Of a DNA stretch of 64,000 nucleotides, positions 28,642 to 31,790 are shown piece by piece. Within the stretch, counting starts at the first letter, position 1; each line of letters opens with the position of its first letter. The notes under the pieces are model-generated. The model was not told where the DNA came from and did no database searches. It worked only from the letters and a program-made list of their open reading frames with translations. The position numbers and the translations under genes are program-made. The stretch lies in NCBI RefSeq assembly GCF_000003815.2, contig NC_049993.1, forward strand, positions 5,919,686 through 5,983,685, given 5' to 3'. This stretch comes from Branchiostoma floridae. Its lineage: Eukaryota; Chordata; Leptocardii; Amphioxiformes; Branchiostomatidae.

Positions 28642-31600
28642 ATGGGACGGCGCAAGTCAAAGAGGAAGCCAGAGGCCAGAAAGAAGCAGGACCCGCTGGA
28701 GACCCAGTTCACATGTCCGTTCTGTAACCACGAAAAAGCATGCGAAGTCAAGATGTAAGATACTGCAAGAATTTGTATGTTTACAGCAGGGTTGTAGCCA
28801 GCCTGAAATCATTTTCAGTCCCCTTGATTTTGAATGGGAATCCTATCGAGCACCGAAGGCATGGCGTGATGTTGCGCGTCATTTCTAGGAGGCCTGGGTC
28901 CCAGAAAATTTTTAAATCAAGACCCTCTGAAACACTATTTCCTGCATTTTGAGGTGCAATTTTGCTTGTAGATTAAGCTGTTCAATGGCATCTGTTTGGT
29001 GAAGAAGAACACATGGGTTTCAGTTTTTTTTAAATATCTTTGCATATCAATTTTTGTCTGTCCCAGGGGACGGAATGGGGAAAACTTTTTTTCAGTCCCC
29101 AGCTGCAAAATTCCTTCAAAGGACTAAAGGACAGGTGCTGGCTACAACCCTGGTTTACAGTCTGTTTGTACACACCGCTGTTCTTGAAGTAGTGTAGCTA
29201 TGGTTACCCCACTTCAAGATTCAACAATATCAATCTGAGTATCAATTCTGGGATGTCCTCTCATGTCACCTACATACCTGTCCATTTAAGTGAAATGTTA
29301 TATAGAAACCTGATCGTAACAGCAAAAATTTCAGATGGACTGTTCCTAGTAGGTAGAGGACATCTTCAGAATAAGTTTTCTCCATATGCTATGTGTGCTC
29401 ACCTGTTTGAGCTTCTATATGAAGATGTATATTTTACATGTTTGGTGTTGAAACAGTTACCAGTGCATGATTACAAAGAATTCAAACTGCTGGCTAGAAT
29501 TTGCTTGTGTTGACCTTATCAATAATCTTCATCAAGATTATTGATAACCAATGTGCTCCCTAATTTCCAAAGAAAATATACAATTTTGTACCTTGAAGTT
29601 GAAGGCTTATGAACATGAGGTGCACACACAAATAGTATATTTTTTTAATTATGTTTTCTTCTATACAAAGTGTTTATTTCATATTTCTTCTGTTCTCTGA
29701 TGTGTTCCTCTCCCTCCGTTATGTTTTGTTATCCATCTTCATCTTCCCGGCAACTAACATCATGTTGTACATACATCTGAAACCTGCTCTCTTCATTGTC
29801 ATGAATTCTCTCCTTTGCTTCCCCTTCTTCTACTATACTTTGCTTTTCATTAAATGCATTTCATTTCGTTGGTGATTTTGCTGTCCTCACTTGCATTCTG
29901 CTTTCCAATGATGTGATGTGTGCTGTGATGTCTTGTACCAACTACAACTGTGCTGTTCCATCTGTCCCGTTCTGTACTATTTTGCTGCTCCTCTGCTGTC
30001 ATGCTCATCTCTCTCCTACCTTGCTGTCTCATTGCTGCTGTGCAACACTTTTCAACCACTGTGCTGTCCCATTGCTGTCATACACCACAATTCTACTCCT
30101 TTGCTGTACCTCTGCTGTTCTTCGCCACTACCTGTGCCAAGTTAGAACATGGGTCGCCGACGTAAAAGTAGCAAACCACCGCCCAAGAAAAAGATGACAG
30201 AGCCGTTACAGATCGTGTTTCCCTGTCCTTTCTGTAACCACGAGAAATCCTGTGAGGTCAACCTGTAAGGAATCATTTGATTTTATTGCTTTTTTATGGC
30301 TTTGTTGACTTTGAAATTTCATTTTGTGTTTGAAATCAAAAGCCATTGCCGTGAAAATTTTATTTTCTGTAACAACATGTAATTTTTTGTAATCTTTTAT
30401 CAATTACTTGTATGCCCTCATTTGCTAAGCTCATAGCATTCAGTTTCAAATCTTTGATTTTCTGATTCTTTTGATTCTTGACCTAGATTGTTGTGTACAA
30501 AAACACAATACCTAAGAATCAGCAAAGTTTGATCTTGGGATCTTGTACATTCCATTACATGTCCCATCCAGATTGTTAAGCAATGCCTATGAACCAGGAT
30601 AATTTTTCCAGCATCAAGTGGACTAAAAATGTGCTTATCTGTTTTGTTTCCCCAGGGATCGAACTCGGAACGTTGGCACGGTGACATGTCGAGTCTGCCT
30701 GGAGGATTTCCAGACTCCAATTAACTGTATCCTTTCTGAGAAGATCTAAAAAAGATATGTTCATTTTCATTAAATCCTGGCTCTAGATGAAAGTCAACAA
30801 ATGATTTGTTTTCCATTCCAGGGATTAGAGTCTTTGATAAGTTTGAATGGTACATCCATTTGTGTCTGTCTATCCAAAATCCAAGTAAACTCACAAGTAC
30901 TGTCCGTGCTATAAAAAGCAAACTTTCAAGTCTGAGTGCATGCAAGGAAAACCCTCAAATCAATTTTCTAGGCATATTCACTGATGAAGAGGCTACTTCT
31001 TGCGCCATGATTGAAGATATATGTCCATTATGCAAGACTTAGATTGAAGAAATTGCCATGTAAGCATTGTGAGTTAATAGAATGTTACACAATCTGTGAT
31101 ACTTTGAAAGGCATAAACACGTTGTATGTACATGTACCTCAAAATTTCAATGTCACAAGGCATTCAGAATTTGGAGGTAGATGTTTATATGTATATAAGG
31201 CCACACCAATTTAATTTCTTGGTTCACGGACTTTTTCATAAAAAATATGGAGCGAGAGGGCGAAATAAAAATAAAAATAAAAATTGTAAAATGGTTGGGG
31301 TAAAGGTAACGGCTAATCCAAAACATAAAGGAAAAAAGTTTTCAGCTTGAAAAAAGTATAAAAACACTATTATTGTACAGTAACAGCACCTGTACCCACA
31401 CTTTAAGGAGCTTATAATATAAAGGCCAATTTGCTACACCAGAGAGTTGGTGAATGGTTTCATTAATGGTGAAAAATTGCTGAGTGGTAATTTTTATTTT
31501 TATTTTTTTTTCCAAAAAATAGGAGCGAGCGAATCCGTGAACCAAGAAATTAAATTGGTGTGGCCTAATCTGGACTAGATACACTCATGAGGGGAAGTGG

Positions 31601-31790
31601 CAAGAGAGACGCTCATCCATTGTGAACGACGGAAGAACCAAGATTCTATTAACTGTATTTCTTCATACTATTGAACCTCTTCAATGTGTAACATTTTTGT
31701 GGATTCCTTGACTTCTCTTCCCCAGACTTATCAGAAGCAGTGGACGTCTACAGTGATTGGATAGATGCCTGTGAATCAGCCAATCAGTAG
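28642..31790 (+). CDS. ELOF1: Transcription elongation factor 1 homolog (ELOF1), isoform with exon 1a
   Basis: Exons 28642-28754, 30656-30726 and 31726-31790 give 83 residues: [15 protein letters not shown]…, [15 protein letters not shown], then [17 protein letters not shown] and [15 protein letters not shown]. Length and sequence are nearly colinear with animal ELOF1 (human 83 residues). The two CxxC pairs (CPFC in exon 1, CRVC in exon 2) form the zinc ribbon, and the basic N-terminus is the known nucleic-acid-contacting tail. Known role: ELOF1/Elf1 binds elongating RNA polymerase II, aids passage through nucleosomes and takes part in transcription-coupled repair in the nucleus. A second version of exon 1 (30149-30264) has the same phase. 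The 3' UTR probably runs to the AATAAA near 32427. Confidence 0.95.
28787..29152. mobile_element. hAT-type MITE between ELOF1 exons 1a and 1b
   Basis: Termini CAGGGTTGTAGCCAGC and GCTGGCTACAACCCTG are exact inverted repeats. Eight-base duplications GTTTACAG lie at 28779-28786 and 29153-29160. CAGGG ends plus 8-bp duplications are diagnostic of hAT. No transposase. Confidence 0.93.
29640..30140 (+). repeat. Pyrimidine-rich tract upstream of ELOF1 exon 1b
   Basis: Five hundred bases strongly enriched for C and T, with many TGCTGT/CTCCTT words, run up to the acceptor of exon 1b. The ORFs here are low-complexity artefacts. It may serve as an extended polypyrimidine or branch region, which is inference. 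Confidence 0.6.
30149..30264 (+). CDS. ELOF1: Alternative first coding exon (1b) of ELOF1
   Basis: This exon has its own ATG and encodes [20 protein letters not shown] followed by [18 protein letters not shown], then ends in CT|GTAAGG. It has the same phase-2 end as exon 1a, so it splices in frame to 30656 and would give an 84-residue protein. Its tail keeps the PPPKKKMT of vertebrate ELOF1, lost in 1a. Exon 1a keeps the ETQFTCPFC core, changed here to QIVFPCPFC. The upstream pyrimidine tract (~29940-30140) and an AG at ~30141 or 30146 provide an acceptor. The two first exons cannot sensibly be in one mRNA, since each has a start codon and one CxxC; they are alternatives. Expression is not provable from sequence. 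Confidence 0.8.
31199..31565. mobile_element. PIF/Harbinger-type MITE, copy 2
   Basis: Same family as 13417-13763, starting GGCCACACCAATTTAATTTC. Target duplications are TAA at 31196-31198 and 31566-31568. Inserted in the last ELOF1 intron. Confidence 0.92.

What the first reader, a model, noticed from the sequence alone, without database searches (positions are those of the whole stretch)
28642..31790. ELOF1 with two alternative first coding exons that swap half of the zinc ribbon
Exons 1a (28642-28754) and 1b (30149-30264) each supply a start codon, the basic tail and the first CxxC, and end in the same phase. They are alternatives onto one shared second half. Their differences fall in the tail and just before the first CxxC, the surfaces expected to contact nucleic acid and polymerase. 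Each keeps different ancestral residues. ELOF1 is normally one of the most invariant eukaryotic proteins, so a built-in variant could give two elongation or repair modes.
Basis: partly seen in the sequence, partly recalled or inferred. Interest (0 to 1): 0.78.

Follow-up and report, generated by a model that had tools for sequence, protein, structure and literature searches.

The report
ELOF1 with swappable duplicated coding exon
A gene for ELOF1, a tiny and normally near-invariant partner of RNA polymerase II, carries an old duplicate of the exon that encodes its tail and half of its zinc ribbon, and the DNA in front of the duplicate looks built for regulated either-or splicing, although no RNA data were available to show it.

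Summary
Exons 1a (28642-28754) and 1b (30149-30264) both join in frame to shared exons 2 and 3, giving 82- and 83-aa ELOF1 proteins (Pfam Elf1 bits 114.4 and 109.9). Protein searches of the whole genome find this one locus. The copies share 22 of 37 residues, synonymous divergence is near saturation, and both are open with usable donors: an old, probably constrained tandem exon duplication. Human ELOF1 agrees with 1a at 10 of 17 differing columns, with 1b at 6. What changes is the mechanism. A 469-nt AG-free, pyrimidine-rich zone (29671-30139) ends at two candidate acceptors 7 and 3 nt before the 1b ATG. It is the longest AG-free run on either strand of the window (next 179) and exceeds all 21,744 runs scored in 200 kb of the same genome (longest 282). 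That is the hallmark of a distant-branch-point, regulated internal exon, so I read 1a/1b as mutually exclusive internal exons behind a shared noncoding leader, not as two first exons. Both keep the CSA-docking NHE; 1b alters the first ribbon strand, 1a the tail. Expression and functional difference are untested.

The parts
27801..27976 (+). putative shared noncoding leader exon (inferred)
   Evidence: No ATG in 176 nt, ends at the best-scoring donor of 27480-28640 (AAG|GTAAAC at 27976; second candidate TTG|GTACGT at 27935); the next 663 nt hold 16 ATGs. Its 5' end is a guess.
28638..28641 (+). candidate acceptors of exon 1a (CAG|AG|ATG)
   Evidence: AG at 28638-28639 and 28640-28641; a further AG at 28609-28610. 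Pyrimidines 13 of 22 upstream: a middling site.
28642..28754 (+). coding exon 1a ([37 protein letters not shown] + 2 bases)
29671..30139 (+). AG exclusion zone upstream of exon 1b; branch point candidates A29700 (CTCTGAT) and A29757 (AACTAAC)
   Evidence: 469 nt without AG, 70% pyrimidine; longest AG-free run of the window on either strand and longer than any run in 200 kb of the same genome; 20 YGCY motifs
30140..30145 (+). two candidate acceptors of exon 1b (CCAAG| and TTAG|)
   Evidence: first AGs after the zone, leaving 7 or 3 nt before the 1b ATG
30149..30264 (+). coding exon 1b ([38 protein letters not shown] + 2 bases)
30656..30726 (+). shared coding exon 2 ([23 protein letters not shown]..)
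31726..31790 (+). shared coding exon 3 with stop codon (..[21 protein letters not shown])

Best explanation
The only ELOF1 locus found in this genome (most likely a lancelet, Branchiostoma floridae: inferred from assembly size and contig count as I recall them) has an ancient tandem duplication of its first coding exon. Both copies appear to be kept by selection (shown by sequence, within limits). They are most likely spliced as mutually exclusive internal exons from a shared noncoding leader exon (inferred). Exon 1b would be selected through a branch point about 380-440 nt upstream of its acceptor, toward the 5' end of a 469-nt AG exclusion zone; proteins that bind this pyrimidine-, UG- and YGCY-rich tract would set the 1a/1b choice (inferred). 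Skipping both exons leaves no in-frame ATG, and including both gives a stop codon or a frameshift, so one-of-two transcripts are the productive ones (follows from the sequence). ELOF1-a keeps the canonical first ribbon strand with a changed tail; ELOF1-b keeps the human-like PPPKKKM tail with a changed strand. Both keep the zinc ligands and the CSA-docking NHE, so both should bind Pol II and support repair docking; they may differ in how the tail and strand engage the RPB1 clamp, the bubble or partner factors (inferred, the weakest step).
For: Gene structure and products. Single locus by protein search. pS 0.72, pN 0.24, pN/pS 0.34 with bootstrap interval 0.16-0.67; simulated neutral decay keeps an open frame with ATG and no indel in 0.4% at 0.3 and 0.01% at 0.5 substitutions per site. 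AG-free zone: 0 AG against 10.3 expected, 0 of 20,000 shuffles; longest of the window, next 179, and largest of 60 Markov simulations 260; 21,744 runs in 200 kb of the same genome, longest 282. Reading-frame logic. Precedents: PMC1431707 and PMC7969005 (passages).
Against: No RNA evidence and no related species. In the zone 59 of 66 Gs follow T, and GG and CG are also rare (o/e 0.22 and 0.26), so part of the AG lack may be composition or degenerate TGCTGT-like repetition. Close to the AG the 1b tract is not special (16 of 22 pyrimidines against 17 of 22 for exons 2 and 3). PTB-type tetramers are not above shuffles. The amino-acid count alone does not reject drift if the 1b branch is as short as 0.3 (P 0.46; 0.04 at 0.43), and 12.7% of bootstraps reach pN/pS 0.5. 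The leader exon is a guess.
Confidence: 0.65

Rival explanations
1. Alternative first exons: 1b has its own promoter in the 1a-1b intron, and promoter choice sets the isoform.
For: Both exons carry their own start codon; only one ATG (30001) lies in the 149 nt before the 1b ATG, so a short leader starting there is possible.
Against: A first exon needs no acceptor, yet the longest AG-free tract of the window ends at acceptor-like AGs 7 and 3 nt before the 1b ATG. A longer leader would carry up to ten upstream ATGs (29671-30141).
Confidence: 0.15
2. Both exons are used, but the two proteins are interchangeable; the pair serves expression control, because double inclusion creates a premature stop and so a switch-off transcript.
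For: Double inclusion gives TAG right after the junction codon (acceptor 30142) or a frameshift with a stop soon after (acceptor 30146); both forms keep the zinc ligands and NHE.
Against: With acceptor 30142 an intact 1b frame starts 6 nt after the start of that stop, so loss of product is not certain.
Confidence: 0.25
3. Exon 1b is an unexpressed relic of the duplication, preserved by chance.
For: No expression evidence was available; 1b departs from a strand shared by human and Komagataella (LETQFTC to LQIVFPC); the amino-acid count alone does not exclude drift on a short branch.
Against: Synonymous divergence near saturation with frame, start codon, zinc ligands and donor intact; the AG-free tract placed at its acceptor.
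Confidence: 0.08

Closest known systems
Human ELOF1 / yeast Elf1
   Same: Same family and fold signature; 78% (1a) overall identity to human; zinc ligands, NHE dock and C-terminal helix sequence retained.
   Different: Two versions of residues 1-39 from duplicated exons. No such pair for ELOF1 turned up in the searches.
OGDH exons 4a/4b (mutually exclusive, distant branch points; PMC7969005, passages)
   Same: Duplicated exon pair with a long AG-free pyrimidine tract before the downstream copy.
   Different: In OGDH exclusion is enforced because the branch points lie near the upstream donor; here donor 28754 and candidate A29700 are 946 nt apart, so simple steric exclusion does not apply.
PTB exon 11, alpha-tropomyosin exon 3 and other distant-branch-point exons (PMC1431707, passages)
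   Same: AG exclusion zone of hundreds of nucleotides (PTB 381, nPTB 438, Fugu PTB 590; here 469), candidate branch point toward its 5' end.
   Different: Branch point not verified here.
U2AF1 exons 3/Ab (PMC5224494, passages)
   Same: Duplicated exon with either-or splicing in a small, conserved zinc-binding factor of the gene-expression machinery (zinc binding recalled).
   Different: A splicing factor, not a polymerase factor, and not the start-codon exon.

Membership tests
Elf1/ELOF1 family (PF05129) | Pfam profile above gathering score | tested here: met
   114.4 and 109.9 bits against 29.8
Elf1/ELOF1 family (PF05129) | two CxxC zinc pairs and the conserved C-terminal segment | tested here: met
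   all four cysteines and YSDW in both products
Elf1/ELOF1 family (PF05129) | binding to Pol II | not testable with these tools
   needs protein experiments
Tandem duplicated, mutually exclusive exons | homologous neighbouring exons with the same end phase | tested here: met
   22 of 37 residues identical, same phase into exon 2
Tandem duplicated, mutually exclusive exons | double inclusion and double skipping unproductive | tested here: met
   stop or frameshift with both; no in-frame ATG with neither
Tandem duplicated, mutually exclusive exons | transcripts with one or the other exon observed | not testable with these tools
   no RNA data
Distant-branch-point exons | long AG exclusion zone directly upstream of the exon | tested here: met
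   469 nt; part of the AG lack may be compositional
[quoted passage not shown]
   candidates A29700 and A29757 by an approximate matrix; others at 252 and 134 nt score lower; use not shown
Alternative first exons (two promoters) | separate transcription start before each exon | not testable with these tools
   no CAGE or 5' RACE; the acceptor-like signature of 1b argues against

The most novel reading that the evidence does not exclude
A core, near-invariant RNA polymerase II elongation and repair factor has been split by exon duplication into two regulated forms that divide its ancestral surfaces, one keeping the clamp-facing strand and the other the tail. Such animals would have two kinds of elongating Pol II complex chosen by splicing, with a branch point some 400 nt from its exon as the switch.
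Probability: 0.3. Interest if true: 0.8.

Novelty: new member of a known kind. Interest (0 to 1): 0.55.

Why it matters
ELOF1 sits at the DNA entry of elongating Pol II and anchors repair factors (PMC10948364, passages). A natural second version of half its ribbon, kept by selection, would be a ready-made mutagenesis experiment on which ELOF1 surfaces matter for elongation and which for repair. It would also give an invertebrate-chordate case of a very long AG exclusion zone, useful for asking how old the distant-branch-point form of either-or splicing is.

Tried and rejected
Considered and set aside. Haplotype or assembly duplicate: excluded by the divergence. Second ELOF1 gene or retrocopy: not found by protein search of the whole genome (only best candidates are scored). 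Steric exclusion between the 1a donor and the 1b branch point: 946 nt apart, rejected. PTB-type regulation: TCTT/CTCT tetramers number 16 against a shuffle mean of 16.3, so not enriched for the composition, whereas YGCY (20 against 9.4) and TGTT/TGTG (17 against 6.2) exceed all 500 shuffles. YGCY at 20 or more occurs in 13 of 7,640 background windows, so it is unusual, not unique. Viral and prokaryotic contig scans with the five-sequence alignment gave no relatives. Structure prediction was not used, because the spliced proteins are not contiguous in the DNA.

Not obtained: sister species (one search says no relatives are held for this genome), RNA data, and a genome-wide DNA search with the AG-free zone (not completed), so whether that tract belongs to a repeat family is unknown; within the window it matches only itself.

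Papers. Seen as passages: PMC6611630, PMC1431707, PMC5224494, PMC13232147, PMC13289920, PMC2831892, PMC10801861, PMC13175633, PMC12368070, PMC8136819, PMC9741552, PMC7969005. PMC10948364: passages plus sections 7 and 8. All others: search listings only. No paper on an ELOF1 exon pair came up (5 papers hold all terms, all listed, one of them opened; 127 papers, 30 listed, none of the 30 holds ELOF1; 1,061 papers, 10 listed, none of the 10 holds ELOF1) or (8 papers on amphioxus with mutually exclusive exons, titles and abstract starts only). That a public database already annotates both isoforms is not excluded.

Full report
Reading 28642-28754 and 30149-30264 gives [37 protein letters not shown] and [38 protein letters not shown]. 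Each exon ends two bases into a codon at a GTAAG donor. Joined to exon 2 (30656-30726) and exon 3 (31726-31790) they give proteins of 82 and 83 residues with one shared second half. Both exons find human ELOF1 in the PDB (E 4.4e-14 and 1.2e-13), and both products score 114.4 and 109.9 bits against the Pfam Elf1 cutoff of 29.8.

The window lies on contig 15 of a 513,431,437-base, 431-contig genome. A protein search of that genome with the 1a exon finds 1a and 1b only, and one with the whole 1b product finds exons 1a, 1b, 2 and 3 at this locus only (only best candidates are scored). So there is one ELOF1 locus and the pair is not two genes.

The duplication is old and both copies look constrained. 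They share 22 of 37 residues. Synonymous differences are near saturation (pS 0.72, 95% interval about 0.48-0.89) while nonsynonymous ones are not (pN 0.24); pN/pS is 0.34 with bootstrap interval 0.16-0.67, and 12.7% of bootstraps reach 0.5. In simulations a neutral copy with 0.3 substitutions per site keeps its ATG and an open frame without indel in 0.4% of runs, and at 0.5 in 0.01% (simple model, uniform substitution, assumed indel rate). The amino-acid count alone rejects drift at 0.5 (P 0.0065), marginally at 0.43 (P 0.04), not at 0.3 (P 0.46). The only direct repeat over 27 nt found in 27800-32500 is an 80-nt block, 73% identical, that covers the 3' part of both exons and their donors.

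Which copy is ancestral? Neither wholly. Of 17 columns where 1a and 1b differ, human agrees with 1a at 10, with 1b at 6, with neither at 1. The agreements come in blocks: 5-8 and 21-25 with 1a, 11-17 with 1b (runs test P 0.046). LETQFTC is identical in human, Komagataella and 1a, while 1b reads [14 protein letters not shown] is shared by human and 1b, while 1a reads EARKKQ and lacks one residue. With the yeasts the counts are 6/4/7 (Komagataella) and 2/5/10 (S. cerevisiae), so polarity in the tail rests mainly on one outgroup.

The new finding concerns the DNA between the exons. From 29671 to 30139 there is no AG: 469 nt, 0 AG against 10.3 expected from composition, 0 of 20,000 shuffles. The next longest AG-free runs in the window are 179 nt (minus strand) and 146 nt (plus strand), and the longest in 60 Markov simulations is 260. 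In twenty 10-kb stretches of the same genome (15,831 of the 200,000 bases are N) there are 21,744 AG-free runs on both strands; the longest is 282 nt and 3 reach 200. The tract ends at CCAAG|TTAG|AACATGG, so its first two AGs would leave 7 or 3 nt of exon before the 1b ATG. Caveat: 59 of the 66 Gs in the tract follow T, and GG and CG are rare too (o/e 0.22 and 0.26), so part of the AG lack is a composition effect. Even so, 25 of 13,865 background windows with pyrimidine content of 0.66 or more (overlapping, from 4 of the 20 stretches) carry 16 AGs on average, the lowest 2. Close to the AG itself the 1b tract is ordinary.

A long AG exclusion zone ending at an exon is the mark of a distant branch point. 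In a set of 67,334 human introns 838 had zones of 100 nt or more (the authors put one-fifth to one-half of these down to distant branch points); PTB exon 11 has 381, nPTB 438 and Fugu PTB 590; the authors state that all experimental examples are alternatively spliced (PMC1431707, passages). OGDH exons 4a/4b, a mutually exclusive pair, use such a layout (PMC7969005, passages). Candidate branch points A29700 and A29757 lie 441 and 384 nt before the first acceptor. The zone holds 20 YGCY motifs, double the shuffled mean, the type muscleblind proteins bind (recalled; listing). So 1b looks like an internal exon, and a leader exon should lie upstream. An ATG-free stretch 27801-27976 that ends at the best local donor and is followed by 663 nt with 16 ATGs is the natural candidate, not proven.

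Consequences in the sequence. Without either exon, exons 2 and 3 hold two ATGs, at offsets 30 and 110, both out of the ELOF1 frame. With both exons, the 1a frame meets TAG right after the junction codon or shifts frame and stops soon after. One exon at a time is the productive outcome. Curiously, with acceptor 30142 the stop is followed by AAC and the 1b ATG, so a double-inclusion mRNA would hold the 1a and 1b frames back to back.

What would the two forms do? In human complexes ELOF1 docks its C-terminal helix on the RPB2 lobe and points its sheet at the RPB1 clamp; CSA binds C29 and N30-H31-E32, and the triple mutant supports transcription but not repair (PMC10948364, passages and section 8). 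The first 15 residues are not seen (PMC13232147, passages), residues 17-19 stretch along the clamp toward the bubble (PMC13175633, passages), and the N-terminus faces the bubble (PMC12368070, passages). Both forms here keep NHE and the cysteines, so repair docking should be common to both. The differences sit in the unseen tail, around 16-18 and in the strand before the first cysteine. Different contacts with clamp, bubble or partner factors are plausible but unshown.

Verdict: observation confirmed; interpretation corrected from two first exons to a probable mutually exclusive internal pair with a distant branch point. As a kind of thing it is a new member of a known kind (tandem duplicated either-or exons) in an unexpected gene. 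No RNA and no sister species could be examined, so expression and function remain open.

Noticed in passing
30727-31725: The last ELOF1 intron looks U12-type (minor spliceosome): donor GTATCCTTT, TTCCTTGAC at 31704 with its A 14 nt from the acceptor end. A U12 intron in mammalian ELOF1, lost in mouse, is reported in PMC2831892 (passages); whether the position is the same was not tested.
   Followed up: partly
30142-30151: If exon 1a were spliced to acceptor 30142, the 1a frame would end in TAG and the 1b ATG would follow after one codon: two ELOF1 starts back to back.
   Followed up: no
31195-31569: Inverted repeat with 36-nt arms, 97% complementary, 303 nt apart, inside the last ELOF1 intron: looks like a small DNA transposon.
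   Followed up: no
28782-29157: Inverted repeat with 21-nt arms, 90% complementary, in the intron just after exon 1a: perhaps another small transposon.
   Followed up: no
26830-27403: Tandem repeat of a 100-nt unit, 5.8 copies, 93% matches, upstream of the gene.
   Followed up: no
14454-15242 (minus) and 11471-11926 (plus): Open frames with Pfam DUF4606 (E 1.3e-29) and part of a protein-tyrosine phosphatase domain (E 9.6e-13).
   Followed up: no
2556-4508 (minus): A 651-aa open frame with internally repeated segments and no Pfam match.
   Followed up: no
56240-56339: Assembly gap of 100 N.
   Followed up: no
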